Shown piece after piece: positions 4,701-62,800 of a DNA stretch of 64,000 nucleotides. Below the pieces are notes generated by a model. That model did not search any database and had not been told where the DNA came from. It saw only the letters and a program-made list of their open reading frames with translations. The stretch lies in assembly GCA_963971575.1 (NCBI GenBank), contig OZ020611.1, forward strand, positions 228,710,260-228,774,259, written 5' to 3'. The DNA comes from Liopterus haemorrhoidalis (taxonomy: Eukaryota; Arthropoda; Insecta; Coleoptera; Dytiscidae). The stretch's first letter is position 1. Each line of letters opens with the position of its first letter. The translations under genes and the position numbers were made by a program.

Positions 4701-4712
4701 TGTGGTGACTAC

Positions 4713-21148: not shown

Positions 21149-21198
<50 letters not shown>

Positions 21199-31000: not shown

Positions 31001-34000
31001 TTGCTTGCATCCTGTATTTGTCACATTACTTTCTGCTACGGACAAAACACTACCAGGTCTACAAGTATGAAATGGGGATTTTTTTTTTTTTAATAAAACA
31101 CATTAATCTCAAAATAACAGTAATAGTTTATTTATTCAAAGTATGCTCTATTAGAAGTTTTTCCCATCTTTCAGGCAATTTGTGAATACCTCGCCAGTAG
31201 AACTCTTCCCCTTTCCCCGCAAACTATTCATTTAGCCATTCTTTCACATTTTCATATGAACAAAACTGCTGCTCGGCAAGTGCGTGACCCATCGATGCGA
31301 ACAAGTGGTAATCTGAAGGGGCCAAGTCTGGTGAGTAAACGGCATCGGGTAGCACTTCCCACTTGAGTGCCTCCAATGTGTTGCAAACTGCTTTTGCTTT
31401 ATGTGATGGAGAGTTTTCGTGAAGAAAGATTACCTTGTGCTGTCGTCTTTCGTATTCTGGTCGTTTTATGAGCAGCGAATGGTTCAATTCGATTAGTTGT
31501 TGTTGGTAGCGTTGGGTATTAACTGTTTCACCAGGTTTTAACAATTCATAATAGACCACACCCTTTTGGTCCCACCAAGTACAGAGCATTGTCTTTTTGC
31601 CAAAGCGATTCGGTCTTGCAGTTGATGTGGATGGTGAGCCTGGGTTCACCCATGATTTTTTGCGTTTGGGATTTTCAAAATAAATCCATTTTTCATCACC
31701 AGTAATGATACGATGCAAAAAAGATTTTCTTTTGTATCGTGCAAGCAAAATTTCACAAGTGTTTTTGCGTTTTTCCATCTGCCTCTCATTCAATGCATGT
31801 GGAACCCATCTGCCGACTTTCTGGATCTTACCTATCTCTCGTAGGCGATTGGAAACAGCTTGTTGACTAACGCCTAACTGCTCTGCTAGTTGTTTTTGTG
31901 ATTGACTATCGTCTTCCTGTAGCAATGTTTCCAATTTTGTATCTTCATATTTTTTTGGAGGTTTTCCATGTTCTTTGTCTGTAAGATCAAAGTCACCACT
32001 TTTGAAACGCCGAAACCATCGTTCACACGTATCTTGCGATGGAGCATATTCACCATAAGCTTCTCGAAGCAGTCTGTATGATTCAGCAGCAGTTTTTTTC
32101 AAATGAAAAAAAAAAACAGTAGTACTGTCCGGAATGCTCTTTATTTGGCACAAAAGTTGACTTTTTTAACACACTAAAACAAAACTATATAATCACTTTT
32201 CAAATTATAACCTATACGCATTTGACACCTAATGATAACTTAACAAAACGCCATATGTGTTGAAACTTTGAATTATACACTCTGTTTGCGCGGCAAGTTT
32301 GAAAAAAATCCGCATTTCATACTTGTACACCTGGTACAGTAAAAAGAAATTTAAAGAAATATGTTTTTTGCCTTAATATCCTCAAGAATTTTAAATTAAT
32401 ATCGATCTTGTTTTTTTAGTTAATTAAAAACAATTTGACGTATTAGAAAGCAGGTTTTCTAGAATGTTTGACAACATATTAATATATCTATTATCTTTGT
32501 AGTTTACTATGATGCTCGTGCTCTTGCTCCAAATCTGGATTGGGTGAACATCATGGGTTTCGACGTCCAAACACCAAAGAGAAATCCAAAGGAAGCTGAC
32601 TACCCAGCACCTTTGTACGACTTGCATGACAGAAACCCACAGAGCAATCTGGACTTCAACGTCAGATACTGGTAAGGAAAATAAAATTATAAAATAAATA
32701 AATAATAATTAAATTATTTCAATTTCAAATCGTACTTTCCAGTTACAATATGAAAGTAAAATATTTTTAATTATTTTTTTATCATGCTCCGAGCTACAAA
32801 TAGCGCAAGATTAAGGATGTGAAAGTGTTTAAATCAAAATGGATACTTTTTGAACACTTTTAAATAATACTATTTTAATTAACAAGCATATAATGGGGAC
32901 TGTATTTTACGAAGTTTACCACTCGAGGGTTGTAATCATCCGAGTGTAATGTAGCCATTATAGAGAGTCAAATACAATATTTTATCTACAACTATATAGT
33001 TTTATCACTCGAAAATAGCTAATTTAATTTAAAAACACAAAAATTCTGAGCGTCAAATGTAAAACGTCAGAACCGACGTCGTCAAGACGGTTTACCATCA
33101 GCTAATTCTAACCTGAAACAATGGTTAAAATTATATTATTTGTTGTTTTATTTATTCTAACTTATAAATAATATTCTACTTATAAAGATAGGCTATGTGA
33201 GGTTAAATAGCCATCGTTACTGTGCGTCAAACAATTTAACTAACCTCCCTAAAAAAAAAAAAAACTTGCAGTGTAAAACATTCATTATTCACGGATGAGC
33301 ACGCATGCGCGTTCCATTATACATGTGTGCAATATGAGCAGCTTTATGCATTTACAGTTAGACACATAATGCATTTATTATTTGATGATAGCAGATAAAA
33401 ATATTTGACTTTCAAGTCGTTATAGAGCAAACAATTTTTTGCAAACCTTAAAAGATATTCTTAAAAAAATCAGCTGTGGCCACCACAGAACCGACCGCCA
33501 TCACAAAGTACTTGTTTAATTTATGCTACTTTATCAAAAAATGTCTCGAATAAAAGTTGTTGGTTATTGCTTTTATAGCAACTTTTGATAAATAATTTTT
33601 TTCGAAATATTTTTGTTCTGAAATATTCGCAAAAATCTTAAAATCGACACGATTAACTCCCATTTCTAGTTAACCGATTTTTACCAAAAGTTGATCAACT
33701 CGTGCCATTGATGTCAAAAGCTTAAATATAAAGTTTCATAAAAATCCTTTTAGTCGAATTTGCTCTGCACGTGTGCACGGACCGACAGACAGACCGACAG
33801 ACAGACAGACACACAGACAGACCGATAGACATCAGGCTAAAAATAGTCAAAATGTAGGGACCTCAATTCGTGGAGATCCATCGAAATCTCGAAATGTCAA
33901 AATCGGTATGATCACAATACCTCCCTTATATATGTTGGCGGTCGGTAAAAATGTTAAACAGTATAAGTTGTTTCTTTTCGAAAGCTCTATCCAAACATAC

Positions 34001-41213: not shown

Positions 41214-41765
41214 ATATTTTGTAATTACAACACTGAGGACATCATAATATAGCTACTCATAAAAATATGAGTTACAGTTTGTAAAACCGAATTTTATCCA
41301 AACAAAACTCCTTATACACTTATCCAGTTAAATCAACACTGTACAATTCTGTAAACAGTAGTCTCCAAACGTTTTATATTACGTACTTCTAAACCAGAAA
41401 AAATAAACCACCAATATATGGATCATACCTTCTCTATTTGGATGGATCTCTTCCTTTAGGAAGCTCAACAGTGAATATATGTAGATTCAAAAAGAAACTA
41501 TAACTAGATATATTTTCTTCCCCCCCCCCCTCGCTCCTCAAGTATCAACGCACGTACCCAATGGAGCATCTGTACCCTACTTTGGAGACCACTGCTGTAA
41601 ACTATAGTTTAATGATATTAATTTAGCTGGATTGTGTATATTAACAGTTCTTCCTTTCTTTATATTTTTGAGTTCGTTAAATTTTGGTTTGTCGTATGTA
41701 CAATTATAATATCACAACAAATAAATCATTAATATACATAATCTGTTGAACATTTATCGTATACC

Positions 41766-41864
41766 TTACCTATTCTTACCTCGGGGAGGATTTTTATTCA
41801 TTCCGAAAAATGAACTCCTGTTGTTTCCTTGACCAATACCTCTACCTCGTACTTTACTTTTGTT
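41766..41864 (-). CDS. Rrp6: EXOSC10 last coding exon
   Basis: The acceptor is TCTTTTTCAG|AAC, followed by 32 codons and TAA at 41766-41768. Encodes [20 protein letters not shown] then [12 protein letters not shown], a short basic Gly/Arg/Asn tail matching the composition of the preceding exon. Phase 0 fits the donor at 54806. The intron between them is 12.9 kb because it holds an LTR retrotransposon. Confidence 0.8.
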   Translation of the reverse strand, partial: NKSKVRGRGIGQGNNRSSFFGMNKNPPRGKNR

Positions 41865-42504
41865 CTGAAAAAGATAATTGAATTAGTTCACATTCTCAAG
41901 TATTGCTGAATTTTTATAGGAAGCATATGATGTCATGAATAGAGACTTCTATTATGTTTACATAATATGTATATATATGTCATTTCTTTGGTTTAAGAGG
42001 ATCCTATACTCAGTCCGCGCGGCACGTAAAACACATGTTAGGGCTTGACGGATTTTACCTACTGTAATGGTACAGCCACTGGTACCCCATTTAATTTTTA
42101 TTTTTCATTTTTATCATTTATTACGCATTCCAAAATAGTAAAAGAAACAGGTTATCTTAAGTGTGTTTCTTATACCTCTAGTTACCGCTAGTACCTTCGA
42201 CCAGATGTGCGGTATTTCAGGGTGTCGGATTTCTCAAAAGGGATACACACAAAAACTATATAAGTAGGCGTCATAAAACGTTGACCACAACTGTCGACAT
42301 TTCGCGTCTGTTCACCGATTGATATATTGGTTATTTTTAAATATGTCTAGTGTTTAACATAAAATTCTAAGAAACCATTTTTTGTGAGGGTTACAACCCA
42401 AATGTGTCAAATAGTCATTAATAGGTCTGTGTTGAAAGAAATTAGTAACCATTTTATGTGTCTGGATTTTGTAAATGTTTTTATGTACAATTCTATGAGA
42501 ACTG

Positions 42505-42592
<88 letters not shown>

Positions 42593-45500
42593 GAAGACAA
42601 GTTCTTTGTCTAGAGTTTGGGGTATATAATCTTGGAGTTTGAGAACAGAAGGGGGCAGTTGGTTTCAGATACTAGCTGCTGGTAGGTCACTATATCGATT
42701 ATTTTTGCTCTGCGCCTACGGCTAACTCATAGGGCAGTGTGGAACCGTGGTTCGCCCATGTTCGGCACGCTATGTGTTAGACGTCCAGGTATCCGCGCAC
42801 TTCATGTAATATTAACGTTTTCTCGCCTACGGCTAACTCATAGGGCAGTGTGGAACCGTGGTTCGCCCATGTTCGGCACGCTATGTGTTAGACGTCCAGG
42901 TATCCGCGCACTCCGTGTAATATTTACGTTTTTCTCGCCTACGGCTAACTCATAGGGCAGTGTGGAACCGTGGTTCGCCCATGTTCGGCACGCTATGTGT
43001 TAGACGTCCAGGTATCCGCGCACTCCGTGTAATATTAACGTTTTTCTCGCCTACGGCTAACTCATAGGGCAGTGTGGAACCGTGGTTCGCCCATGTTCGG
43101 CACGCTATGTGTTAGACGTCCAGGTATCTGCACACTCCGTGTAATATTAACGTATTTCTCGAATACGGCTAACTCATAGGGCAGTGTGGAACCGTGGTTC
43201 GCCCATGTTCGGCACGCTATGTGTTAGACGTCCAGGTATCCGCGCACTCCGTGTAATATTTACGTTTTTCTCGCCTACGGCTAACTCATAGGGCAGTGTG
43301 GAACCGTGGTTCGCCCATGTTCGGCACGCTATGTGTTAGACGTCCAGGTATCCGCGCACTCCGTGTAATATTAACGTTTTTCTCGCCTACGGCTAACTCA
43401 TAGGGCAGTGTGGAACCGTGGTTCGCCCATGTTCGGCACGCTATGTGTTAGACGTCCAGGTATCCGCGCACTCCGTGTAATATTTACGTTTTTCTCGCCT
43501 ACGGCTAACTCATAGGGCAGTGTGGAACCGTGGTTCGCCCATGTTCGGCACGCTATGTGTTAGACGTCCAGGTATCCGCGCACTCCGTGTAATATTAACG
43601 TTTTTCTCGCCTACGGCTAACTCATAGGGCAGTGTGGAACCGTGGTTCGCCCATGTTCGGCACGCTATGTGTTAGACGTCCAGGTATCTGCACACTCCGT
43701 GTAATATTAACGTATTTCTCGAATACGGCTAACTCATAGGGCAGTGTGGAACCGTGGTTCGCCCATGTTCGGCACGCTATGTGTTAGACGTCCAGGTATC
43801 CGCGCACTCCGTGTAATATTAACGTTTTTCTCGCATACGGCTAACTCATAGGGCAGTGTGGAACCGTGGTTCGCCCATGTTCGGCACGCTATGTGTTAGA
43901 CGTCCAGGTATCTGCACACTCCGTGTAATATTAACGTATTTCTCGAATACGGCTAACTCATAGGGCAGTGTGGAACCGTGGTTCGCCCATGTTCGGCACG
44001 CTATGTGTTAGACGTCCAGGTATCCGCGCACTCCGTGTAATATTAACGTTTTTCTCGCCTACGGCTAACTCATAGGGCAGTGTGGAACCGTGGTTCGCCC
44101 ATGTTCGGCACGCTATGTGTTAGACGTCCAGGTATCCGCGCACTCCGTGTAATATTAACGTTTTTCTCGCCTACGGCTAACTCATAGGGCAGTGTGGAAC
44201 CGTGGTTCGCCCATGTTCGGCACGCTATGTGTTAGACGTCCAGGTATCTGCACACTTCGTGTAATATTAACGTATTTCTCGAATACGGCTAACTCATAGG
44301 GCAGTGTGGAACCGTGGTACGCCCATGTTCGGCACGCTATGTGTTAGACGTTCACGTATCCCCGCACTCCGTATCATATTTACGTTTCTCGAATACGGCT
44401 AACTCATAGGGCAGTGTGGAACCGTGGTTCGCCCATGTTCGGCACGCTATGTGTTAGACGTCCAGGTATCCGCGCACTCCGTGTAATATTAACGTTTTTC
44501 TCGCATACGGCTAACTCATAGGGCAGTGTGGAACCGTGGTTCGCCCATGTTCGGCACGCTATGTGTTAGACGTCCAGGTATCTGCACACTCCGTGTAATA
44601 TTAACGTATTTCTCGAATACGGCTAACTCATAGGGCAGTGTGGAACCGTGGTTCGCCCATGTTCGGCACGCTATGTGTTAGACGTCCAGGTATCCGCGCA
44701 CTCCGTGTAATATTAACGTTTTTCTCGCCTACGGCTAACTCATAGGGCAGTGTGGAACCGTGGTTCGCCCATGTTCGGCACGCTATGTGTTAGACGTCCA
44801 GGTATCCGCGCACTCCGTGTAATATTAACGTTTTTCTCGCCTACGGCTAACTCATAGGGCAGTGTGGAACCGTGGTTCGCCCATGTTCGGCACGCTATGT
44901 GTTAGACGTCCAGGTATCTGCACACTTCGTGTAATATTAACGTATTTCTCGAATACGGCTAACTCATAGGGCAGTGTGGAACCGTGGTACGCCCATGTTC
45001 GGCACGCTATGTGTTAGACGTTCACGTATCCCCGCACTCCGTATCATATTTACGTTTCTCGTCTACGGCTAACTCATAGGACAGTGTGGAACCGTGGTAT
45101 GCCCATGTTCGGCACGCTATGGGGGAGGACGACTGGTAATACTGGCCCTGCGCCTCACAACCGTAGGGGTCCGCGGCGCCTGACCGGTTCTCTATGGTTC
45201 ACAACCGTAGAAACCGATACACACACCGAAGGGTTGACAGACCCAACAAAACTGTATTTGCGGGTAGCAGACCCGTCCGTCGAAACAACACCGAATACAC
45301 CGTCTTGCACAGAAAGCAGCGGTTAGGTGATCAAACTATATCTACACGAGTAATAAACCCGTGTTGGATAAAACAGCCACTCATTATTGATTGCAAATAA
45401 TTAGGTATAAGATCCTAGTCAACGCTAGTGATCTTAACAATGGTATGACATGATATGGACCGCATGCTTAGTTTGGAAGTGTAGATTTGATAGTAATATT

Positions 45501-47730
45501 TGGGTAGAAACTTACGTTATCACTATAAATGTGTTAATCTGAATTTACCTTCCAGCCATCACAATCAGACGCATTAATAACCATGTTTGTACTATTTCTG
45601 AATGACTAGACCGTTAATAAACTATTTGATTTGAATGTGTCCCGGCGTTTCTTTGTAGACATAGCTTCCCGCTCCAAGAACGAACCGACTTCATAATCCT
45701 AAAAAAACACAACGTAGGGCAAGACGAGTAAAATGGCCAGTACATAAATTCCCCAACCGTCACAGTGGTGCCGTGACCAGGATCCTTGGAGTTCTAAGCA
45801 GGATAGCTATGTCTAAGGAACATGTCAAAATTGATAGAAAAGCGAGAAGAAATACACCATTGCACAAGGACAGTATTATTTAAAATAACATCTCAAGAAT
45901 GAGAAGTAAAGGTGAGAATATTTAGTAATACATTTGTTTTATTTTAGTTACATCTTAGTAAGATGAAAACTAACGCCAAGAGACAAATTGGAACCTAAGA
46001 ATAACCATGGATCTGGGGGAGAGGCAGCAACTCTATTTTATGCTGAAGGAGACGTGAAAACATTGTTTCTGTTGATATGGGCGACTTGAGGAGAAATGCG
46101 GGATACCGAGCTATTGCAGCCAGAATACAGCGGCGTATCAGAGAATTATGATGCGGGGGAGAGTTCCTCCCATCTACACTATCTTCCGGACTGGCCGGAA
46201 TAGAATAATCATGGAAAATTCCTCTCCAACTATTGTTATCTACAAACAGATATATACGAGTGAGAAATAATTAAAGAAGAAGAAGAAGAAGGTTAGTAAC
46301 AGTTTATTACCAGCGGTTACTCAGGTTTAGGTCTGAATTAAGTAAGATCTTCACAATAACTGGGCTACCGACGTAATAATTTAAGCTGTTATACCTACGA
46401 CGACGAACTAAATATTACCTATGATATACAAAGTTAAAACCCGCAAAGAGACAACACTACAAGCTACCTGGACTCTACTAGCCATACATGTCAGGAGCAA
46501 AGCTAAGCTGAGATATTGAAAAGGAGAGACTTCAAATTACATGGACATATAAAGTCACGACAGCTTACTGGAGAAGCTGCCGTTCAGCCAGCTAATACCG
46601 CTAGAGAGTAAGGAATTGTCAAACAAGTGCATGGCAATCCACTGATACCGCTGGTCGGAGACCATCGACGCCTTCGTCAGACAGCTGTGTCCCCAGCTCA
46701 CGCCATTAGAGACAAACATGACTCTGAAGTAGCCAGTAATGAGTACAATAAGGTAGTGTATAGTTCGAGAATTTTGAAAAACACCACGCAACCCTGGAAG
46801 GAAGCAAAGCTACAGCATCTCGCACCAGGACTCATCGGCCGGGGGGAGCCCACCTCCGCCTATGATGATGCCGTCAACTCCGTATCTTCAGGCCCACAAC
46901 CAACAAGGATATTAATTCGGATAAAATATTTTGATATTCTATCTATGTAATTCTTGTTATGTACAAGTATATTAATTGGTGAGCATTTTTTTGAATTTGT
47001 TACAAAAAATTTCGGTTTTGTGCACTTGCGGAATTACCAGAAAGAGATTTAATAACTTTATGTTGCAAAATGGGATAGTCAAAATTATAATAATAATAAT
47101 TTATTAATTTGACTAGGAAAAATTAACTATATTTGAAACCACAGTATTTTAGTTGTTCGTTTGTGGCGTTCGTATTTGGAAATTTCTCTATTAATTTACT
47201 TCTTTGTGCTAGATCGAATACATTTACGGGGAAAGGGATGTTGCGAATTGTTCCTAATTCTGTCGACACAATTCGCAAGGGGGAGACTGTAATGGTACAG
47301 CCACTGGTACCCCATTTAATTTTTATTTTTCATTTTTATCATTTATTACGCATTCCAAAATAGTAAAAGAAACAGGTTATCTTAAGTGTGTTTCTTATAC
47401 CTCTAGTTACCGCTAGTACCTTCGACCAGATGTGCGGTATTTCAGGGTGTCGGATTTCTCAAAAGGGATACACACAAAAACTATATAAGTAGGCGTCATA
47501 AAACGTTGACCACAACTGTCGACATTTTGCGTCTGTTCACCGATTGATATATTGGTTATTTTTAAATATGTCTAGTGTTTAACATAAAATTCTAAGAAAC
47601 CATTTTTTGTGAGGGTTACAACCCAAATGTGTCAAATAGTCATTAATAGGTCTGTGTTGAAAGAAATTAGTAACCATTTTATGTGTCTGGATTTTGTAAA
47701 TGTTTTTATGTACAATTCTATGAGAACTGG

Positions 47731-47805
<75 letters not shown>

Positions 47806-50800
47806 GAAGACAAGTTCTTTGTCTAGAGTTTGGGGTATATAATCTTGGAGTTTGAGAACAGAAGGGGGCAGTTGGTTTCAGATACTAGCTGCTGGTAGGT
47901 CACTATATCGATTATTTTTGCTCTGCGCCTACGGCTAACTCATAGGGCAGTGTGGAACCGTGGTTCGCCCATGTTCGGCACGCTATGTGTTAGACGTCCA
48001 GGTATCCGCGCACTTCATGTAATATTAACGTTTTCTCGCCTACGGCTAACTCATAGGGCAGTGTGGAACCGTGGTTCGCCCATGTTCGGCACGCTATGTG
48101 TTAGACGTCCAGGTATCCGCGCACTCCGTGTAATATTTACGTTTTTCTCGCCTACGGCTAACTCATAGGGCAGTGTGGAACCGTGGTTCGCCCATGTTCG
48201 GCACGCTATGTGTTAGACGTCCAGGTATCCGCGCACTCCGTGTAATATTAACGTTTTTCTCGCCTACGGCTAACTCATAGGGCAGTGTGGAACCGTGGTT
48301 CGCCCATGTTCGGCACGCTATGTGTTAGACGTCCAGGTATCTGCACACTCCGTGTAATATTAACGTATTTCTCGAATACGGCTAACTCATAGGGCAGTGT
48401 GGAACCGTGGTTCGCCCATGTTCGGCACGCTATGTGTTAGACGTCCAGGTATCCGCGCACTCCGTGTAATATTAACGTTTTTCTCGCATACGGCTAACTC
48501 ATAGGGCAGTGTGGAACCGTGGTTCGCCCATGTTCGGCACGCTATGTGTTAGACGTCCAGGTATCTGCACACTCCGTGTAATATTAACGTATTTCTCGAA
48601 TACGGCTAACTCATAGGGCAGTGTGGAACCGTGGTTCGCCCATGTTCGGCACGCTATGTGTTAGACGTCCAGGTATCCGCGCACTCCGTGTAATATTAAC
48701 GTTTTTCTCGCCTACGGCTAACTCATAGGGCAGTGTGGAACCGTGGTTCGCCCATGTTCGGCACGCTATGTGTTAGACGTCCAGGTATCCGCGCACTCCG
48801 TGTAATATTAACGTTTTTCTCGCCTACGGCTAACTCATAGGGCAGTGTGGAACCGTGGTTCGCCCATGTTCGGCACGCTATGTGTTAGACGTCCAGGTAT
48901 CTGCACACTTCGTGTAATATTAACGTATTTCTCGAATACGGCTAACTCATAGGGCAGTGTGGAACCGTGGTACGCCCATGTTCGGCACGCTATGTGTTAG
49001 ACGTTCACGTATCCCCGCACTCCGTATCATATTTACGTTTCTCGAATACGGCTAACTCATAGGGCAGTGTGGAACCGTGGTTCGCCCATGTTCGGCACGC
49101 TATGTGTTAGACGTCCAGGTATCCGCGCACTCCGTGTAATATTAACGTTTTTCTCGCATACGGCTAACTCATAGGGCAGTGTGGAACCGTGGTTCGCCCA
49201 TGTTCGGCACGCTATGTGTTAGACGTCCAGGTATCTGCACACTCCGTGTAATATTAACGTATTTCTCGAATACGGCTAACTCATAGGGCAGTGTGGAACC
49301 GTGGTTCGCCCATGTTCGGCACGCTATGTGTTAGACGTCCAGGTATCCGCGCACTCCGTGTAATATTAACGTTTTTCTCGCCTACGGCTAACTCATAGGG
49401 CAGTGTGGAACCGTGGTTCGCCCATGTTCGGCACGCTATGTGTTAGACGTCCAGGTATCCGCGCACTCCGTGTAATATTAACGTTTTTCTCGCCTACGGC
49501 TAACTCATAGGGCAGTGTGGAACCGTGGTTCGCCCATGTTCGGCACGCTATGTGTTAGACGTCCAGGTATCTGCACACTTCGTGTAATATTAACGTATTT
49601 CTCGAATACGGCTAACTCATAGGGCAGTGTGGAACCGTGGTACGCCCATGTTCGGCACGCTATGTGTTAGACGTTCACGTATCCCCGCACTCCGTATCAT
49701 ATTTACGTTTCTCGTCTACGGCTAACTCATAGGACAGTGTGGAACCGTGGTATGCCCATGTTCGGCACGCTATGGGGGAGGACGACTGGTAATACTGGCC
49801 CTGCGCCTCACAACCGTAGGGGTCCGCGGCGCCTGACCGGTTCTCTATGGTTCACAACCGTAGAAACCGATACACACACCGAAGGGTTGACAGACCCAAC
49901 AAAACTGTATTTGCGGGTAGCAGACCCGTCCGTCGAAACAACACCGAATACACCGTCTTGCACAGAAAGCAGCGGTTAGGTGATCAAACTATATCTACAC
50001 GAGTAATAAACCCGTGTTGGATAAAACAGCCACTCATTATTGATTGCAAATAATTAGGTATAAGATCCTAGTCAACGCTAGTGATCTTAACAATGGTATG
50101 ACATGATATGGACCGCATGCTTAGTTTGGAAGTGTAGATTTGATAGTAATATTTGGGTAGAAACTTACGTTATCACTATAAATGTGTTAATCTGAATTTA
50201 CCTTCCAGCCATCACAATCAGACGCATTAATAACCATGTTTGTACTATTTCTGAATGACTAGACCGTTAATAAACTATTTGATTTGAATGTGTCCCGGCG
50301 TTTCTTTGTAGACATAGCTTCCCGCTCCAAGAACGAACCGACTTCATAATCCTAAAAAAACACAACGTAGGGCAAGACGAGTAAAATGGCCAGTACATAA
50401 ATTCCCCAACCGTCACACTACGCTAATCAACTGATCAAAATTTAACAAAAACATATGTAAAGATAATATATAAATCTTTGATCCTGTTGATTGTATTTTC
50501 TTAAATTCCTTCCTCTTTATGAATATTGGCACTTGCAAAGTAAGCAATTTGAAAGTAAAGAAAAACAAAAAAAAAATGAAAAAAATACACAATGCAAGCA
50601 AAGTTTAATGTGTCGGTTGTACATACATACACAACTGTGACTTATATTAGTTAGTAGTACTGCAAAATTTGGATAGTCAACATGATTTTTTTTAACTGAA
50701 AATATGCTGCCTCTAGCGGACAGAAGTCTGAACCTACAAAACTCCGCCCCAATGTACTTGGCCAAGTAAGAAAAGTGACAAAACTTATCCAAGGTCATTA

Positions 50801-53800
50801 TTAGCTTTCGGAAGATTTATTTCATAGATTATTTCAGTATAAACATAAGATTTTAAAATATTTTAGAGGGAAAAAATCATTTATAATTTATTTACCGATC
50901 TTTTTAAATCTTCGTAATTAATTTATCCCAATTTTTAAGATCAGAATGGTAACCAGACAACTGGGGCAGTAAGACAATTCGGGCCGTTCACAATTGGGGC
51001 TTTTCACAACTGTGCGCCCGAGGCAAAGTGCCTCCCGAAACCGGCGCCCCATATTTTGGCCGCGCCCGGAAAAAACATTATCCGAAAGCGGCGCCCCATT
51101 CTTTACCTGCGCCTGAGGCAAAAGCGCCCCCACGAAAGTTGCGCGCCATATTTTGCCGCGTCCGCGGCAAAATCCCAACAAGCGGATTTAACGACTCGGG
51201 ACACCGTCCAGAATCCAGCGCCACCAACCGCTCGGTTCCCGCGCCGGGAAGGGCGTATCTCGGCCCTGGGAGCCGTGCGGGACCAGCTTGTTGGGATATT
51301 GCCGCGGACGCGGCAAAATATGGGGCGCAACTTTCGTGGGGCGCTTTGCCTGGGGCGCAGGAAAAGAATGGGGCGCCGCTTTCGGAGGATGTTTTTTTCT
51401 GGGCGCGGCCAAAATATGGGGCGTCGGTTTCGGGAGGCACTTTGCCCCTAAAATATGAAAAAAATTATTTATTTAAAAAAACACTAAAAATGACTTAGTT
51501 CCAACCCTTTAATGATTTGTTTTTTGATTTATTCAAATGAATACTAAAATTAACTTAATCCACCCCTTAAAATACAAAATAATTTTAATTTTATTTAAAA
51601 AAACACTAATATGTATATAATCCAACTCTAAAATACATTTTTTATTTATTTATTCAAAAGAACACTTAAATTTACTTAAGCCAACCTTTAAAAAACATTT
51701 TTTTTATATAGTATAATGTATTTATGTATTTACAATAAATAAAATTGAAATTGAAATAGTCAAAAGAGCACTAAATTTTACTTAATATAACTCTTAAAAT
51801 ACAATTTCTTTTTAATCAAATAATCACGAAAATTTTCTTAAGCCAACCCTTAAAATACAATTTTTTTATTTATTCTAATTCCCACCAAAATGTACTTAAT
51901 AAAACCATTAAAAAAAATATATATATTTCTAAAGAAGAACAGAATCAACAAATAATTTGTGATCTTTACCTACATTTTTATTAGATTTTGGTCGACTGAA
52001 TAGCATGAGCAAAATCTGTCAAAATATTAAATATGTAGGTATGATCTAAAATCTCGCTTTTTCAGTTTTTGCCCATACTATGCAACTAAACAAAATCAAA
52101 TAAACATTTATGTGAAGATAATATATTATTTGTTGATACATATACTTATCAAGGCATTGTAATCTAGTTGCTTGCTGTATGAATCGAAACGTCAAACGGT
52201 GCAAGATTTCTCATATAGTTGACACAAACAAATATTAAATGTGTTATGTTTCTGAGTGTACTGTCAGACTTGTCGTTCACGCCTTCTTGAATTGGGGGGA
52301 GCAGGCGGGAACGATAGATACCCTAATGCAAAGAGTATAGGATCCTCTCACGCGGAAAAGCGGTTCCCAAACTTTTTTGAGCGCGACCCGGTACGAGGTT
52401 TTAAAAATTTTCGCGACCCACCTTATGAAAAAAAACCATTTATTAACAAAACAAATTTTGTTTTAAAGCAGTAGCTTTATAGTATTAAAGAGTAATAAAG
52501 AGTATAGTATAGTAATAAAGAGTATAGTATAGTAATAAAGAACACAAATACACACTATTCTAGTGATTAAGTGACGTAAAAAAAATAATAATATGTACAA
52601 AAAAAATCTTTTTTGTGTTTTTACAATTTTTTTCGCGACCCGGTAAAATTTTTCTGCGACCCGGTGCCGGGTTGCGACCCACCCTTTGGGAAACGCTGGT
52701 CTAGGTTATTTCATGTTGGCATTTTTATTAAGCGACATTTATTATAAAAAATAAAATATAAGCTATTCCAAACGATTAGGCGGAACTAGATTTTGCAATC
52801 TAGTTACTTTCATAATTTAAATCGTGCTTTTTGGCCGTGTTGTTTAAGCTTTGTAAATCATACTTACAATAAACATTTTTTGGTTAAGGTTAATGTCATT
52901 TTAAAATGAAATTTTCTTTATATTTTGATTTTTTTGTATCATTCTCAATACAAATTTCCCATTTATTTATTTTTTTGTCATTAAAATATGTAAAAAAAGT
53001 ATTTTATTTTTGGCATATGTCATTTGTTCCCATGGTTTCATTGTTGGAATTTTAAATTTTGACATTCCAACGTGAAAAATGAAATAACCCAAGCAAGGTC
53101 GCTTCTCGTGACAACCTAAAAGAACGAAATTCCCATTTAGTTCCGCCTAAACGTTTGGAATAGCCTGTATATAATACATTTTCAATTTTTTAAAGAAATT
53201 TATAGAAATAAAGTGGGTTTTACACTGTTTAATTTATTGATCAATAAATTTAAAAAAATTGATCTTCAATTTATTGATGAAATATGAACACTTTACACAC
53301 AAGTGTTCATATTTCATCAATAAATTGAAAAATTTAAAAATTGAGCAATTTATTTTGAAAATAATTTTTTATAAGGGCTTTATGACACAAACTTTAATTA
53401 TTTTCATCGGCATGCTGCATGAAAACGCAGAAAATCATATTTTTTTTATTACAAGATCACGTGACCGTTTGAGTCCTTTGGGACACTGTGAATCGCATGC
53501 CTATAATCTTTAAGACTTTAATTTTGTTTTAACTGTCTATTGATAAAAGGGTAAGCATTATTAAATCAGAGAAAAACACTAAATTTTGTGCAAGTGGAAA
53601 TGCAATTTTCCATATAACCGGAACGCGTTCAGGGGTTTAGACCATCCTTTCTTTGTTGTCACAAGGTAAACATTCTCTTCTCCAAAAGACATGCTGTATG
53701 AAATCGGAGACCATACACTGTCATGAGCTCCCGGTCTATAAGTAAAACGGTTTGTTTCTTGAAATTAACAAAATATGACTTGCACCACCTTGGCTTTGAC

Positions 53801-56800
53801 CCGATTCACGGTAAGTTCATCGAAAATCAATTCATCGAATGATCAATTCATCGAAAAAAAATATTTTGTAAATATTTGAGAGGAATGCCGAGGGGATCGG
53901 AAAACCAAAAAAGCAGTGGTCAATAAAAGTTGACAGACTACACTTATTAAATAACTACAATGTGCGGTGTTCAATGTACGGTGATTCTAAACAGGTGGCA
54001 TTGTTATGTTAGTGTGAGTTTGTTTTGTCATTAAACTAGATGATGGGTAGCTCGCTTCGCTCGGCTTCTTCTAACCAAACCCTTACTAACCTAACCTAAC
54101 CTAAGATAGTGTTTTGTCATTAAACTAGAAGATGGGTAACTCGCTCCGCTCGGTTTTAGACTTTTACTAACTAAACCTAACCTAATTACCTTGTTTTTAG
54201 ATGCATAGTACTTTATTTTCCCCCATATTAGCCCAATTAAAATGCGTATCATTATGTATGAATTTATAAAAATTATTTGCGTGCAATTGCCCATAACCTG
54301 TCTTATTAAACCTTAAAAACAAAACTTTATTTGTTTTATTATATAAGTTTTCTTATTATATATCTTTATTTATATTCAAACACTATGTCACTTTATTTAC
54401 CTTTTTTTAAACCATATAAAAAATTTTATGCAATTATTTCCTAGTCTTTCTACTTTTATTGACCACTGCTTTTTTGACTTTCCGATCCCCTCGGCATTCC
54501 TCTCAAATATTTACAAAATATTTTTTTTCCGATGAATTGACGATTCGATGAATTGATCATTCGATGAATTGATTTTCGATGAATTGATTTTCGATGAATT
54601 GATTTTCGATGAATTGATTTTCGCTGAATTGATTTTCGATGAATTGATTTTCGATGAATTGATTTTCGATGAATTGATTTTCGATGAACTCGTCGGTTAC
54701 CCTTTGACCCATATACGCGTCAGACATTTTGATTTCTCGGTGACGTAATGTTCTTCTTATAAAAATTCAACTATACCGTATTTCCCTCTCCACTACTGAA
54801 CTTACCTTTCCTTTGAAGTTTGTTTTAACATTATGAGCATTATTAACACTCCCAGCACCTCCTTGGAACTGTTTAAAATCGAATGTAGCATAATCGAAGG
54901 CTTGAGCATTTCCCTCATTTCTGGTATTTCCTTTATTAAATTTCTTATTTCCTTCTTTATTCATATTTTGTCTTCGACTGCCACCTTGCTGATTATTTCC
55001 TTTATTTTGCTGACTGCTTCCTTGTTGATTATTTCCTTTATTTTGCTGACTGTTTCCTTGCTGATTATTTCCTTTATTTTGCTGACTGCCACCTTGCTGA
55101 TTATTTCCTTTATTTTGCTGATTGTTTCTTTGTTGATTATTTCCTTTATTATGCTGATTTCTTCCAGGCTGATTTAGTTCTTTATTATGTTGATTGCTTC
55201 CTGGTTGATTTAGTCCTTTATTTTGTTGATTACTTCTTTGCTGATTATTTTGACGTTTCTTATTAGGACGTCTTCGTTGATTCTGATTCGGATATTGATT
55301 TTGATTTTGTTGATTTGGAATATGCTGATTCTGGTTTTGATTGTATTTTTTATTTTGCCAATTATTATCTCTTTTTTGTGTGGAATTTTCATCTTCGAAA
55401 CTACCACTTGGCCTAGCATTTCCTTGGTTATCTTTGAATTTTTTAGGTAATTGATTTTTACCACCTTTGTTTTTTCTTTTACGAAAGTTGTTCCTTGTTT
55501 GTTCGGGTGCTACTGAAGGTCTTACATCGGATAGAGGTTCTACGTTAAGAGCTTGGTCATCTGATTCATTGCCTGTTTGGTCGTGTTCAGGAAGATTTGA
55601 AGGACTACGTTTTCGTTTACAACCAGTCATTTGGCGTAATGGTATATCTTTTTTACTGACTCTTACTTGGTTCTGAAAATATAAGAATAATGATAAATAC
55701 AGACAACCTACAGACTATTCCAAACGTTTAGGCGGAACTAAATGGAAATTACGTTCTTTTAGGTTGTCACGAGAAGGGACCTTACTTGGGTTATTTAATT
55801 TTTCCGGTTGGTATGTGAAAATTTAAAATTCCAACAGTGAGACCATGGAAACGAATGACGTTTATTAAAAATTTTGAAGACAAAAAAAATAAATAAATGG
55901 GAAATTTTTATTAAGAATGACAAAAAATTAAAATGCAATGAAAATGACGTGAGTATGATTTACAAAGCTTAAACAAAATGACCAAAAATCCGAATTAATA
56001 GATAAAAATTAATAGATTTCAAAATCTAGTCCCGCCTAAACATTTGAAATAGCCTTTACGCTTCTGAAATTAAAAAAAGCCATATATAAATATATTTCTT
56101 ATTAATTTAATGAAGACTTGAATACGAAGCAAATACAGAAAAATTCTCTGGGATTTTTTAATTTAAATTTTATTATAATCCATCTCAATTTGTAATACGA
56201 AACTAGATCTGGTTACTTTGGTGACTGTTGTGGTGTAAACAGACTTTGGCGTATCTGTGTGAACCAATACTATGATAATATTATAAATGTATTGTCAATA
56301 TACAACATAAAAAATGAACTTTCCCTGTTAGTTACGTATTACAAAATGAGACAGATAATATGACAAATTTCTTGCAGACTATTTAAATTTTGTTTAAAAA
56401 ATAAAATAAAAATTTAAATGTTGAATAAACCGGTTTCAATAAATTATTTTTATTAATTTTTATTCAAGTTTATTTTAATTTTTTTAAAATATGTAACTGT
56501 ATTTACAGCTCTAAAATTAATAGACTATATGCTACGAATTGTTTACTGTATATTGTCAGTAACAAGTTTGTCATGTGGTAACGAAAGAGACTGTTCACAG
56601 CTCTAAATTTAATAGACTGTGCATTGTCGACTATAGACAATTTTCCAAACTTTACAGTTAGTGTTTTGAAAACAAAGCACTCATTAAAAAACTGCTTCTC
56701 ATTAAAAAATTGAAGTAAAGTGTGCATTTTTATACATTTCTGTGTTTTGCAGGTATTTAATAAGTGTAATAAGCCAACATAATACTGGATGTCTAGGTAT

Positions 56801-59800
56801 ATTTATCACATCAAAATCAACAGTTTTTTTGATAATCACTTTTATTCGTTATTTGGGAACTAAGAGCTTCCATTTATTTTTTTTAAACAAAATTTAAATA
56901 ATTTGCCGAATATCCCAGCGTTTTTTTTTTTTTTCTACATTTGCTTCGTATTTAAGTCTTCTTTAGATTAATAAGAAATATTTTACAGTGTAGAATGTAG
57001 TGTGGTGTGGTGTGAGTAACTCAGTTCGCAACTATTAAAAAAATATATTATTTTTTAAATATTTTTAATTGCAAAAAAATACACGCACTATCTTAGCTAT
57101 AAATACAAAAAAATCATAACATTATTAGCCATAATTTAACCATGAATTAAAAAAATAATTAATTTTTTCAAAAACACAATCTGATCAAAAATTCATCTTG
57201 TAAGTTTCCGCCTCAGATCAATATACATTACCTATAATTTTTTCAGATTTCTAGTTTAACCCTTTTTGTTAAAAGGGTGCGAACTTTTGCACATTTTTGG
57301 CTAAATTCGTGTTAAAAGAAACGAATTTCAAAAAACTATCTATCGTTCCGTAATCTACGTCATAAGAGCTTTCTTTTGATACTACACAATAATTTTTAAA
57401 AAATATATATATTTTTTTTCAACGACACAAATTAATCGACATTTTTCGAAAAATGTATCTGATCAAAAATTCCTGTTTAACTATTTCAGTTCCCATCAAT
57501 GTTCATTACGAAGATTTTTTTTAGATTTTTAGATCAATCCCTTTGGGCGATAGGTTGGGGGACAAAAGTTTGTCGAGACATTTTTGGCAAAAATCAAATA
57601 AAAAAAAAAAAATTGTTACAAAAATAAAAATTTGTTTGTTGATCCACAAATTAAGAGGTTTCATTTGGTATGCCAATCAAAATTTTAAAAAAATATTTAT
57701 GTTTTTATTAAATACATATTTGTTTATATTTATCCCGCGTTGTATTTTTTTGAACTCTCTATAGTTTTCCTATATGTACCGTGTGATCATAATTTCTTGT
57801 CAGTTACATAAGAGTAAACAATGAGCTTAAAAATATCAAAACTGTATTCTATCTCATATCTCAAAATTCCAATTTAACAAAGAACCAATCAGATTTCTTT
57901 GTTTGTTGATAACTTCATGTTGTTCGTTAACTCATTGGTGTGTAGAGAAAAAGTAGTGTTCATTTCATAATTAATTGGTTTTTGTTAAGATATATTATTG
58001 TTTTTTTTTTTTCGTTATTATTGTTGTTGTTATTATTGTCATTAAGATTGTAATTGGAAGACGATTGTTGATCGAGGTTAGCACTTAGAGGTAAGTGAAA
58101 TATTGAACATACATAACCCAATATAAAAATCGAATCTACGTCTATGTGTGCATGGTCCTTGGAAATAAATTTGATAACAAAATGTTTCTGTCAACTATTG
58201 CATAACTGACAAGAAATTATGACCGCTCTGTAGGTCAAAAAGCTGTACAAGAATGCCAAATTTTAACTTTCTATGTTCAGCCATTTGGCTACAATTTCTA
58301 CCGTACAGACAGACATACGAGTGACGTTATAAGGGTTTTATGGTGGACATACATACAAAATCCTAAAAAATTAAATGGAAGCTCTTATTACTCAAATAAC
58401 GAATAAAAAGGATTATCCAAGAATTGTTGATTTTGAAGTGATTTTAGAAAAAATATTCCTAGACATCCAGCATTCTGCTTGCTTCTTAAGTCCATTCTAC
58501 ATTATACTTTTTTTAATACTATCCAACTCTGACGTCAATTCAACTTTTGATACCACAGAATATAGTGGGGAGAAAAAATAAGAGAAAGTGATACTTCCAT
58601 CTTTTATTACTTTGTAATACTTTTCACTGCCAACTTAAAAAATTCTAGTTTCAGGTGACAGACAACAGTTTGGTTATAGAACCAATTCTAGTAACCAATT
58701 TATAAATACTGTTTAATTGTGCTAAGTTTATATTTAATTATATGTTCTAAATAAACTTCTTATCAACTTAATAAACTTCTAAAAGTTTTAAAGTTGTAAA
58801 CAAAAACTAAAAAGTTGGTAGTTGGTACGACTGAGAAGTATACAACTGTCATCCAAAAATTTGACCGGAGGTAGTTTTGAAAATAGTGTAGTTTGCAGTG
58901 TAGCACCGAAAGTTGGAAGGAAGTATTGTGTTTCACATTATACTTTTTACGTCAATAATACGCAAAAAATCTGTAGTGCTACGCAAAAAAGTATAATGTA
59001 GAACGAACTTTACACTTATTAAATACCTAAAAATCTGTGAAATGTGTGAAAATTTGCACTTCAATTTTTTTTTAATTTATGGCAACAAAACATAAGATAA
59101 ATAAATACTTACAGCATTATCCTCAACACATGGTTTGTTAATGACTTCTACACTAATATTAATCCCGTTTTGCGTAACCTTTCTTTCTACAGCAGGTTTC
59201 CCATCTGTTTTGTCATTATTTTCCTCTATGCTTATTTTATCCCCTTCAAATCCTTTAACCACACGTTCTGGCTTTCTTTCTTTCGCTAACAAAGCTTTTT
59301 CTTTCTCTTTTTCTTCTTCCATAGCCTGAATAAATGGTTTAACCATCTTATACCTTTCAAAAGGTCCCAAAAATTTCATTTTCTTTACTTTACTCAGCGC
59401 ATCTTTTTGTAATTTTCTAAGAGAGTCTTCAATAGAATCAAATACATTTATAACAGGATTATCGTTCTCTATTTTTATATTTAGGTCTACATCCATTTGT
59501 TTTTTTATTGGTTTTTCTGGTGTTTCAGTTTTTTCAATGTTTTGGTTTAGTATGTTGCCGAGTAAGGTTGGTAGGTCATCTCGGAATTCTCCTGTATAGG
59601 TTAAATCATGTGGACAATTTAAAGCGGTGTCTACATTGAGTCTTGTTACTGTTTGAACGCTTCCGAGACTTCTTGATTGTTCCGATAATATTGGCTGAAA
59701 ATAAAAATATCAGATTGGTACTTATGAAATGTCGAATATTTTTCTTTAAATGTTTCTGATAGAGATAGGAAGAGTTCAGCCAGATCTCTCGTAAACCTAC

Positions 59801-62800
59801 GGGTAGGATAAACGTTCCATACTACTCTATTACAATATCTCCATGTCATAGGTGAAGTTAAAACATTGATGTGAAGTGTCAATATTCACACATTTCAGGG
59901 TTTCGCAGGTATATAATAAGTGAAGGCTGAGTGTGTAGGACAAATTTTACTTTGTAGTAATCACGGCAAAATGAACGATATTTTTAAAATAATTTATCGT
60001 CTGTTAATCATATAATAAGAATGGTTATTAAATTTACGCTCTTAAAAATTAAATGCAACATTTGTCAAAATATAACTAGAATTTTGACAAAATAATTTCA
60101 ACATAATAAAAATTAAAAAAAAAACAAAAAATAAAATTCACTCTGTACTCGAACTCGAAACCCTTCGTTTCCAGCGCACTTTAGCTTCCGACATTGCACG
60201 CTTTGCATTTGGGTGTCTTACATTGGTATAACTTTTGTACTTTGTGAACCAAAAACCACAAAAAATGCGTTATTTTCCGAAAACATAATCTGATCAAAAA
60301 TTCCTGTTGTACTATTTCGGTTCACACCAATATACATTACTTAGAATTTTTTTAGATTTTTAGTTTAAACCATCTGGGCTACAGGGTGTGGGACAAAATT
60401 TTATTTGCACAATTTTGACAAAAATCGCATCAAAATAATTTATTTTGCAAAAATAAAAATTTGATCGTTAATCCACGTACTAAGGGCTTTGATCTAATAC
60501 CCTACTCAGAATTTAAAAAAAAATATTTTTGATGTCGATGAGCACATATTTGTTTATATTTTTAAGGGGATAAGTTTTTTAGATGTTTTAGTATTTTTCC
60601 TATGTGCGGGTGAAAGAGTTGTATAAGCAGGCCAAATTTCAACTCTCTAGGTTTAGCCGTTTGGCTACAATTTTTACCGAACAGACAGACAGACAGACAG
60701 ACAGACAGACGACAAAATGACGGTATAAGGGTTTTTTGGTCATACCTACAAAACCCTAAAAAAGGATCAATTCTTCTTTAATAAACGTATGTTCGACTTG
60801 ACTTTGAAACGTAAAATAAATAAATTAATAAATAAAATTAAATCAAATGAATAAATTAAGTAATTATGTAAGTAATAAAGTTTTGGTTTTTTTGCAATGG
60901 TCAATAAAACTTTTATTTTGTTTGTTTTTAATGTCCTTCAATCCCTAGCATTGATCCTTATTCTCGAATAACACTCTTAAATTAAAATGGGATTCTTATT
61001 TTCGGACAGAGGGAGTATTTGATATCCCCCCCCCCCATATGACATATCACCACCTGACATATCCAAATAATAATAATAATAAGTTGACGGTTGCTGAAGT
61101 TGCGATTAGTGGACGCTGGTCAAGACCTGTCAAACCCCAAATAATAATAATAATAATTACTACAATTACCTTAACAAGTGACTGTTCTCTGGCTTTCAGT
61201 ATAAGCTTGTGTATTTCCAATAAATTCGCTCGAACTAAAGGTGGTATTGGATTACAGCAAGCCAATATCCCTTGCATTTCTCTCGGTAATATTTCAGCAA
61301 TTTGCAACAACATATGATTGGGCAAAACATAACCTGTACTCTCATCTTCAGTTCTTGATATACCGTCCCTCCATTTATACAATTCCTTTAATGCAAACAT
61401 TTGTCGGTTATCAAATAATTTTTTGCATTTCCTGTAGAAGTCCAAATGGCTGTTTGCGGTTAATCGTGGTTTCTTGTATCGTTTCTTGCAAAGTTCCGTA
61501 CTTTGGTCTATTACTGCTTTTAATATATGTGATTTTTTGTTACCTAAATCTAGAAGTTCATTTCTCAATTTGTGATAGATGTATATTAGATAATGGGTGT
61601 CTTCACGTGCGTAGACTTTTAGTTCGTCAGGTAAAGGCCTAAAAATGTGAATGGAGACAATTAAAATTGAGGGGCCAAGTTCATAATCTTTTACTTAATA
61701 TTAACAGCACTACTAACACAAATATACTAAGCGCTATTAAAAATTGATGTTCATAATACAGAATTATTGTTAGTAGTGTTATAGTCGGATTGCTGATAAG
61801 TGACTGTTCGTTGCTACAAGTATCGATATTCAATACTATATGCTTTCTCTGTCTATATCACTATAATTATTTGCATACCCATAGTAACGTATAGTGACTC
61901 AAGTTGACAACTAACCTTCAAAATTATTAGAAAACAAAGCATTAGAAAGAAACAGCATGATTCGTAGATATCTTTACTAATTAGAGCGCGAAAATAAATT
62001 TACAGCAGTACTCAAAGAAACAAAATTATTAATTTTAAGGTAATAATTATAAATAAGGAAAAATTTATACTCATATAAGCAGTTCACTTTTGTAAGAACA
62101 AACTAAAGTCTGTTTCAAACGGTTAGGCGGAACTAGATTTTGCAATCTAGTTACTTTCATCGTTTAAATCATGCTTTTCGGCCGTTTTGTTTAAGCTTTG
62201 TAAATCATACTTACAACAAACATTTTTTGGTTAAGGTTAATATCATTTTAAAATGTCATTTTCTTTATATTTTGGTTTTTTGTGTCATTCTTAATACAAA
62301 TATCCCATTTACAGTCTGTTCCAAACGGTTAGGCGGAACTAGATTTTGCAATCTAGTTACTTTCATCGTTTAAATCGTGCTTTTCGACCGTTTTGTTTAA
62401 GCTTTGTAAATCATACTTACAATAAACATTTTTTGGTTAAGGTTAATATCATTTTAAAATGTTATTTTCTTTATATTTTGATTTTTTGTGTCATTCTTAA
62501 TACAAATTTCCCATTTATTTATTTTTTGTCAGTAAAATAAGTAAAAAAAAATAGTAGTATTAAATTTTGACATATGTCATTCGTTTCCATGGTTTCATTG
62601 TTGGAATTTTAAATTTTGACATTCCAACATGAAAAATGAAATAACCCAAGCAAGGTCCCTCTTCTCGTGACAACCTAAAAGAACGAAATTCCCATTTAGT
62701 TCCGCCTAACCGTTTGGAACAGACTGTATTTATTTTTTTGTCATTAAAATATATAAGAAAAATAATTAAATTTTGACATATGTCATTCGTTTCCATGGTT

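What the first reader, a model, noticed from the sequence alone, without database searches (positions are those of the whole stretch)
42063..50417. LTR retrotransposon whose LTRs are mostly a 112-bp satellite, with no coding region
Seen: TG...CA direct repeats of 3.7 and 3.1 kb, CTAC target duplication, primer-binding-site candidate, polypurine tract and a 1.5-kb internal domain without gag/pol. 22 and 17 copies of a 112-bp unit fill most of each LTR. Known non-autonomous classes (TRIM, LARD) differ: TRIMs have short LTRs and LARDs a long internal domain. A short-core element with giant satellite LTRs is unusual and may be undescribed. Such an element could seed satellite arrays across the genome.
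Basis: partly seen in the sequence, partly recalled or inferred. Interest (0 to 1): 0.9.

Follow-up and report, generated by a model that had tools for sequence, protein, structure and literature searches.

The report
Retrotransposon family with satellite-filled LTRs
A mobile DNA element without genes, present in many copies in an unidentified animal genome, carries a block of tandem repeats inside each of its end repeats; the block's length, and in different branches its sequence, changes much faster than the rest of the element.

Summary
Confirmed. The feature is a recent LTR-retrotransposon insertion: TG...CA LTRs of 3,702 and 3,130 bp, 4-bp target duplication, PBS, PPT, and a 1,523-bp internal domain without recognisable coding. 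The LTRs differ by two substitutions, 12 bp of a GA tract and exactly 560 bp (five 112-bp units). The genome (1.02 Gb) holds 21 near-complete internal domains. All 10 copies with both ends read have 4-bp TSDs, as do 8 of 10 solo LTRs checked. Every unit cluster that the searches listed (a part of the sites) lies in an LTR, so the unit looks like the element's own. Relatives carry other units (122, 134, 139 and, in a distant relative, 124 bp) in the same LTR slot, just downstream of a TATA box found in all 22 LTRs compared. In 11 of 15 insertions with both LTRs measured, the arrays differ in length. One copy joins the U3 of one subfamily to the array of another, as strand transfer within R would. 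No autonomous partner was found. [quoted passage not shown] Satellite seeding elsewhere is not supported.

The parts
42059..42062 (+). target site duplication CTAC, left copy
   Evidence: 4-bp TSDs at all 10 copies with both ends read
42063..45764 (+). 5' LTR, 3,702 bp, TG...CA
42257..42263 (+). first TATA-like box; its longer context CTATATAAGTAGG is present in 17 of 22 LTRs compared
42505..42594 (+). (GA)n tract, 5' LTR; runs of 8 or more GA in 12 of 22 LTRs compared (112- and 122-bp types and the chimera), not in the other 139/134-bp LTRs or the 124-bp relative
42623..42629 (+). second TATA box TATATAA, present in 22 of 22 LTRs compared; candidate core promoter about 90 bp before the array
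   Evidence: role inferred
42713..45121 (+). 112-bp satellite array, 22 unit starts
45616..45621 (+). AATAAA in a conserved AATAAACT(A/G)TTTGAT motif, candidate poly(A) signal; would place the array inside R
   Evidence: 21 of 22 LTRs; role inferred
45765..47287 (+). internal domain, 1,523 bp, no recognisable coding
45766..45783 (+). [quoted passage not shown]
   Evidence: recurs in related copies
47277..47287 (+). polypurine tract AAGGGGGAGAC at the 3' LTR
   Evidence: PPT|LTR junction at 24 sites
47288..50417 (+). 3' LTR, 3,130 bp
47730..47807 (+). (GA)n tract, 3' LTR, 12 bp shorter
47926..49774 (+). 112-bp satellite array, 17 unit starts (five fewer than the 5' LTR)
50418..50421 (+). target site duplication CTAC, right copy

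Best explanation
It is a recently inserted copy of a non-autonomous LTR-retrotransposon family that depends on proteins of another element, probably Ty3/gypsy-like by its 4-bp TSD. The LTR has a fixed slot, between a conserved TATA box and the 3' part of the LTR, that held a tandem array in every complete LTR read. From the conserved TATA and AATAAA motifs the array should lie inside R, the part of the RNA repeated at both ends (inferred). The tRNA-primed first cDNA must then transfer from the 5' R to the 3' R, and a tandem array lets it pair in any register or with a co-packaged RNA. Copying a long array also invites slippage. This would change array length at retrotransposition, homogenise units and join the U3 of one subfamily to the array of another. 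Shown: structure, TSDs, copies, solo LTRs, unequal arrays, different units in one slot, one chimera. Inferred: R limits, strand-transfer mechanism, trans-mobilisation, superfamily.
For: Structure. Twenty-one near-complete internal domains, the others 84-91% identical to the window copy. Four-bp TSDs in 10 of 10 copies with both ends read, of 11 examined. Solo LTRs with clear TSDs in 8 of 10 checked. Different units in the same slot. TATATAA in 22 of 22 LTRs, AATAAACTRTTTGAT in 21 of 22. Arrays differ in length between the LTRs of one insertion in 11 of 15 pairs, while 7 of 9 pairs aligned have 0-1 substitution in 980 bp outside the array (the other two have 10). The extreme is 17 against 46 units with 0 substitutions. 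Chimera at C1:55.67 Mb: U3 part 93-95% to two 112-type LTRs and 86-87% to two 139-type; 3' part 98-99% to the 139-type and 92% to the 112-type. The unit clusters listed lie in LTRs.
Against: No transcript data, so the R limits are guesses. Standard reverse transcription makes both LTRs of an insertion from one copy, so unequal LTRs need slippage in plus-strand or displacement synthesis, or unequal exchange after insertion. Four of 15 pairs have equal unit numbers. No autonomous partner was found. The 112-bp unit has no clear similarity to the others, so one ancestral array is unproven. RNA folding of tandem units is not unusual on the sense strand, so there is no sign of an RNA role.
Confidence: 0.8

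Rival explanations
1. The arrays change length after insertion, by unequal sister-chromatid exchange or replication slippage as in any satellite, and reverse transcription has no part in it.
For: Several differences are whole numbers of units (560 bp in the window copy; 139, 973 and 693 bp in three 139-bp copies), as both processes would give. In C6:41.2 Mb the longer array reads mostly as repeats of segments present in the other LTR (13 against 31 units), and C6:37.8 Mb differs by three units.
Against: Several pairs have no substitution outside the array, so the exchange rate would have to be very high. A chimeric LTR with its switch between U3 and array is better explained by strand transfer.
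Confidence: 0.4
2. A host satellite inserted by chance into one LTR and is carried along without role; other copies captured other satellites.
For: The 112-bp unit is not clearly related to the 122/134/139-bp units.
Against: No listed 112- or 139-bp cluster lies outside LTRs (partial lists). The slot is at the same alignment position in the types aligned, including the distant 124-bp relative, and 134-, 139- and probably 122-bp units are homologous.
Confidence: 0.12
3. The array is kept because it works as a repeated enhancer, insulator or CpG-rich control block close to the promoter, like the repeat in the gypsy 5' UTR.
For: Slot beside the promoter kept in the LTRs read; units are 51-60% G+C against 31% in the window's first 42 kb, and CpG is 1.35-1.74 times expectation in four of five unit types. 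PMC3286476 (section 14) cites the gypsy 5' UTR tandem repeat as an insulator.
Against: The 124-bp unit has CpG 0.77 of expectation, and no shared motif between 112-bp and other units was found. Not exclusive of the best explanation.
Confidence: 0.3
4. It is not a mobile element but a chance pair of satellite blocks with direct-repeat flanks, or a segmental duplication.
For: None beyond the satellite content.
Against: PBS, PPT, TG...CA ends, TSDs in 10 of 10 copies with both ends read, and solo LTRs.
Confidence: 0.01

Closest known systems
cqUNK elements of Culex quinquefasciatus (38 non-autonomous LTR families; PMC3286476, section 14 and passages read)
   Same: Insect LTR elements with PBS, PPT and mostly TSD, no coding region, no known master copy; contain tandem arrays; repeat sequence varies among families.
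   Different: Their arrays are described as lying between the LTRs and the LTRs in the table are 125-931 bp; here the array is inside the LTR, so it is doubled, and measured LTRs are 1.6-6.3 kb.
Ogre/Tat plant retrotransposons with hypervariable tandem arrays (PMC7004042, passages read)
   Same: Retrotransposon-borne arrays of varying monomer sequence and length; illegitimate recombination or abnormal strand transfer between co-packaged copies is cited there as a hypothesis for their origin.
   Different: Arrays lie in the 3' UTR of plant elements and some expanded into true satellites; here the array is in the LTR of a non-coding animal element and no free array was seen in the partial lists.
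pDv elements and the pvB370 satellite of the Drosophila virilis group (review table in PMC9659126 seen; original recalled)
   Same: Satellite related to terminal repeats of a dispersed element.
   Different: The review table files pDv as Class II; the original was not read, so structure could not be compared.
LARDs such as Sukkula (PMC7215508 passages; LTR sizes recalled)
   Same: Large non-coding LTR elements, assumed to be mobilised in trans.
   Different: Satellite-filled LTRs are not in the passages that I saw; the internal domain here is only 1.5 kb.
TRIM, TRIMp3/Helenus (PMC10886601 abstract and passages; PMC6934838 abstract and outline)
   Same: Non-coding; animal Helenus has 4-bp TSDs and some use tRNA-His as primer.
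   Different: Helenus is 311-1,263 bp with a tRNA-like Pol III promoter; neither holds here.
Woot of Tribolium castaneum (recalled; original not held)
   Same: Gypsy-class beetle element with about 3.6-kb LTRs.
   Different: Autonomous, with gag-pol; whether its LTR holds a comparable array was not checked.

Membership tests
LTR retrotransposon | Two LTRs with TG...CA ends and short TSD | tested here: met
LTR retrotransposon | PBS next to 5' LTR and PPT next to 3' LTR | tested here: met
   recurs
LTR retrotransposon | Dispersed copies and solo LTRs with TSDs | tested here: met
   (of 10 solo LTRs 8 clear, 1 ambiguous in a GT tract, 1 without)
Ty3/gypsy superfamily | pol gene phylogeny | not testable with these tools
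   no pol; the 4-bp TSD is only suggestive
TRIM | Short element (under about 1 kb) with short LTRs | tested here: not met
   8.36-kb element, LTRs over 3 kb
TRIMp3 / Helenus / Ajax | tRNA- or 5S-like Pol III sequence in the LTR | tested here: not met
   no tRNA by ARAGORN; no Rfam match at gathering score; one sub-threshold match, RAGATH-26, E 2.1
LARD | Long LTRs, non-coding, several-kb internal domain | tested here: inconclusive
   long LTRs and no recognisable coding met; internal domain 1.5 kb; no agreed minimum checked
Culex cqUNK type | Non-coding LTR element with tandem repeats between the LTRs | tested here: not met
   the arrays are inside the LTRs
Retrozyme | Self-cleaving ribozyme in the LTR | tested here: not met
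   no family at Rfam gathering score in the window; in 42063-47290 nothing up to E 5 except RAGATH-26 at 20.9 bits against a threshold of 86.3
Ordinary satellite DNA | Arrays mainly outside mobile elements | tested here: not met
   all 9 clusters among the 100 listed of 760 sites (112-bp unit) and all 10 among the 100 listed of 542 (139-bp unit) lie in LTRs; the listed sites are exact matches on C1 (with 76, 87, 106)

The most novel reading that the evidence does not exclude
The R region of this retrotransposon is a satellite-generating slot: each round of reverse transcription can lengthen, shorten, homogenise or swap the array through strand transfer between repeats of co-packaged RNAs, so satellite turnover is coupled to transposition and new satellite types arise inside LTRs much faster than the flanking LTR diverges.
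Probability: 0.35. Interest if true: 0.75.

Novelty: new variant of a known kind. Interest (0 to 1): 0.58.

Why it matters
Links between transposons and satellites are usually seen after the event. Here related elements in one genome show five satellite units in the same LTR slot, array-length differences within single young insertions, and a strand-transfer-like chimera. That makes the question whether retrotransposition itself creates and turns over satellites directly testable. It also warns that tools which expect two LTRs of equal length can misjudge such elements.

Tried and rejected
Free satellite: rejected as far as seen, because all listed unit clusters lie in LTRs (with 76, 87, 106, 107). 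The lists show only 100 of 760 and 100 of 542 sites, exact matches, all on C1.

Pol III or small-RNA LTR, ribozyme: no tRNA, no Rfam family at gathering score. RNA structure of the unit: single unit z -1.53 on the sense strand (16 of 200 shuffles as good); tandem dimers z -2.8 to +0.7 over four units and both strands, the one value below -2 being the minus strand of the 122-bp unit. Rejected as a general feature.

Constraint within the unit: variable columns 24 of the first 68 and 26 of the last 44 among 53 distinct units. Suggestive, but gene conversion could do the same; not used.

Autonomous partner: PBS pattern, 28 sites: 12 at known copies, one the 124-bp relative on C4, and 15 whose short flanks showed no similar LTR end by eye. 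LTR-end+PBS pattern, 41 sites at up to 2 mismatches, control 3; one of the looser ones (C1:97.48 Mb) was read and is unrelated. PPT|LTR pattern, 24 sites at up to 1 mismatch, all at internal-domain matches; one of them (C1:113.71 Mb) I did not read. Two more sites on C7 have 3 mismatches, and the control had 16 matches. At C11:30.06 Mb an integrase C-terminal piece and a Baculo_F (envelope-like) frame lie upstream of a copy of our family. I tested whether they belong to it. They do not seem to: the copy there is a deletion product, the first 24 bases of our LTR joined to internal position 467, and the stretch after the envelope frame recurs beside other envelope places (C12:22.93, C2:24.24, C1:197.18, C7:31.69), of which at least two (C1, C7) have a second copy 8.8 kb away like an LTR, while those places show no match to our internal domain. 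So it is probably a neighbouring errantivirus-like element with other LTRs. A partner with other ends is not excluded.

Exact patterns in viral and prokaryote collections: nothing, as expected for an animal. Literature: nine searches, eight with hits, one with none; among the listings and the passages I read I saw no LTR-embedded satellite array of this kind. That covers open-licence PMC full text only. One search lists virus papers on LTR repeats (listing only), not followed up.

Copies left out of the 15-pair count: C1:108.15 and C9:28.41 (one LTR incomplete); C4:24.86, C1:125.21, C1:93.73 and C16:37.42 (second LTR not read or measured); C11:30.06 (deleted), C1:113.71 and C2:32.03 (fragments); the C4:27.16 relative. 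Within the 15, C11:33.39 differs by a non-whole number (4.48 units; its 5' LTR seems to lack about 76 bp).
Full report
OBSERVATION. The window element spans 42063-50417. LTRs of 3,702 and 3,130 bp begin TGTAATGGTACA and end CCAACCGTCACA, with CTAC on both sides. The internal domain of 1,523 bp starts with G and TGGTGCCGTGACCAGGAT and ends with AAGGGGGAGAC directly before the 3' LTR. Over 3,130 aligned bases the LTRs differ by two substitutions, a 12-base difference in a GA tract and one 560-base gap. Read as unit variants, the 5' array is A B C D B C B C D E D C C F G E D C C F H (then a partial unit) and the 3' array is the same without five units near its start. One deletion of five units in the 3' LTR, or two duplications in the 5' LTR, explains this (inference).

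NO CODING. The longest stop-to-stop frame is 112 aa, within the range of the randomised sequences. Ten of the 22 pieces of at least 35 aa were scanned and gave no Pfam match above cut-off. The 112-aa piece found nothing in the protein database. No tRNA, Rfam family or ribozyme reached its threshold.

COPIES. The window lies on contig C1 of a 1.02-Gb genome. A search with the internal domain gave 31 matches, all 26 candidates scored. I group them into 21 near-complete internal domains including this one (the others 84-91% identical, some interrupted), and four partial matches: C11:30.06, C1:113.71, C2:32.03, and C4:27.16, which is a distant relative. Ten other copies were read on both sides. 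Together with the window copy, 10 of 11 have both ends, and all 10 have perfect 4-bp TSDs: CTAC, GTAC, AGCT, CCCT, GAGT, AGTT, AACC, CTAT, GTAC, GTAC. The eleventh (C1:108.15) has a 3' LTR without its end. The first 438 bases of the LTR gave 282 candidates, of which only the best 40 were scored; by position, 18 of those 40 are not near any internal-domain match. The last 643 bases gave 311 candidates, 40 scored. Ten of at least 11 solo LTRs bounded by both lists were checked: 8 have clear 4-bp TSDs, one sits in a GT tract and is ambiguous, one has none.

IS THE UNIT A FREE SATELLITE? A 25-base piece of the 112-bp unit occurs 760 times (up to 1 mismatch; reversed control 0). Only 100 sites are listed, exact matches on C1; they form nine clusters, each next to an LTR start or end found. 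A 27-base piece of the 139-bp unit occurs 542 times (control 0); the ten clusters among its 100 listed sites, again exact matches on C1, all lie upstream of an LTR end in the right orientation. The last cluster measures 1.07 kb away, because the list is cut inside it. So within what was listed the units are the element's own; the unlisted sites were not checked.

DIFFERENT SATELLITES IN ONE SLOT. Copies whose internal domains are 84-89% like the window's carry other units: 122 bp (C9:28.41 Mb, in its 3' LTR; its 5' LTR has lost that part), 139 bp (C11:33.98, C4:24.86, C1:55.67, C16:39.86, C11:33.40, C1:93.66, C2:31.30, C16:26.26) and 134 bp (C1:125.21, C1:93.73). C16:37.42 and the other near-complete copies carry the 112-bp unit. 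A distant relative at C4:27.16 Mb, alignable only in parts (77% over 113 bp and 82% over 55 bp of the internal domain), has nearly the same ends, PPT and PBS and a 124-bp unit, six copies, in the same place. In the alignment (7 sequences before, 5 after the array) the arrays start shortly after the same TATATAA stretch and end before a shared stretch around TCACAACCGT. Units of 134 and 139 bp are clearly homologous (score 99, maximum 35 in 300 shuffles). The 122-bp unit is related more weakly (36 against a maximum of 30 with the 134-bp unit; 31, with 2 of 300 shuffles as good, with the 139-bp unit; but its comparison with the reverse strand of the 134-bp unit also exceeds all shuffles). The 112-bp unit shows no clear relation (best 25, 11 of 300 shuffles as good). 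G+C is 51-60% in all five against 31% in the window's first 42 kb; CpG is 1.35-1.74 times expectation in four and 0.77 in the 124-bp unit.

ARRAYS CHANGE FASTER THAN SEQUENCE. Unit counts in 5'/3' LTRs of the 112-bp type: window 22/17, C1:242.5 17/46, C9:17.5 8/8, C6:36.9 23/12, C4:42.4 8/8, C1:118.6 22/9, C6:37.8 14/11, C6:41.2 13/31. In the first 380 and last 600 bases, these pairs and, last, C11:33.98 have 1, 0, 0, 1, 0, 10, 1 (plus a one-base gap on each side), 0 and 10 substitutions. For 139-bp copies the differences are 5 units (C11:33.98), about 2 (C1:55.67; 266 bp, with a variable GA tract), 1 (C16:39.86), 0 (C1:93.66), 0 (C2:31.3), 7 (C16:26.26), and 4.48 for C11:33.39, whose 5' LTR has lost about 76 bp. 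In all, 11 of 15 pairs differ and 4 do not. The two 8/8 pairs differ by 26 and 16 bp, of which 26 and 15 lie at the GA tract.

MECHANISM. TATATAA about 90 bp before the array is present in 22 of 22 LTRs (20 insertions, two of them with both LTRs), the upstream TATA context in 17 of 22, and AATAAACT(A/G)TTTGAT, 131-151 bases from the 3' end, in 21 of 22. I infer that transcription starts just before the array and ends after it, so the array makes up most of R. Minus-strand transfer from 5' R to 3' R can then pair in any register or with another RNA. The chimera at C1:55.67 Mb has a U3 part 93-95% like two 112-bp-type LTRs (86-87% like two 139-bp-type) and a 3' part 98-99% like the 139-bp type (92% like the 112-bp type) with a 139-bp array, the product expected from strand transfer between two RNAs. 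That the two LTRs of one insertion differ needs an additional step (slippage in plus-strand or displacement synthesis, or later unequal exchange), and the data do not decide between these.

WHO MOVES IT? Unknown. All 24 PPT|LTR junctions with at most one mismatch fall at internal-domain matches, and no gag-pol element with these ends was found. The one place where coding pieces (integrase C-terminal domain, Baculo_F) were seen beside a family member, C11:30.06 Mb, looks like a separate errantivirus-like neighbour. [quoted passage not shown] That my PBS is tRNA-His rests on recall of tRNA sequence.

KNOWN RELATIVES. PMC3286476 (section 14 read) describes 38 Culex families of non-coding LTR elements with tandem repeats between the LTRs. 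PMC7004042 (passages) reports arrays in the 3' UTR of Ogre elements and cites abnormal strand transfer as a hypothesis. PMC9659126 (passages and table) lists satellites derived from LTRs. In what I read of them none describes a standing array inside the LTR that varies between the two LTRs of one insertion. Repbase and Dfam were not available.

HOST. Not identified. The element lies between putative exons of an EXOSC10-like gene on the minus strand (HRDC and exonuclease domains). Among the best hits the top one with a name is from the fly Eurosta solidaginis at 62% identity; three unnamed ones score higher, up to 91%. An arthropod is likely, no more.

Noticed in passing
13839-20526: A 6.69-kb near-perfect palindrome (99.91% self-inverted); an assembly fold-back artefact or a very recent inverted duplication.
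   Followed up: partly
31050-32345: A mariner-type transposon with a long transposase frame (Pfam Transposase_1, HTH_48) and what look like terminal inverted repeats TACCAGGT....
   Followed up: partly
41760-61694: Exons of an EXOSC10/RRP6-like gene on the minus strand; a candidate exon with AG/GT borders near 41783-41867 would put the retrotransposon in an intron, in antisense orientation.
   Followed up: partly
L031 (G000:C1:55668300-55673300): Chimeric LTR: 112-type U3 and GA tract joined to a 139-type array and 3' part.
   Followed up: yes
L056 (G000:C4:27157500-27162500): Distant non-coding relative with nearly the same LTR ends, PBS and PPT but a 124-bp unit array in the same slot.
   Followed up: partly
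L025/L026 (G000:C9:28.40-28.42 Mb): Copy whose 5' LTR lacks everything from the GA tract to the PBS while the 3' LTR has a 122-bp array and the TSD is intact.
   Followed up: no
L029 and L078 (G000:C11:30060400-30066600): An errantivirus-like element (integrase C-terminal domain, then a Baculo_F envelope-like frame), with four further copies of 92-95% protein identity elsewhere, upstream of a deleted copy of the satellite-LTR family.
   Followed up: partly
4238-4707, 20894-21348, 33481-33952: Three dispersed copies (83-89% identical) of a repeat of about 450 bp, not identified.
   Followed up: no
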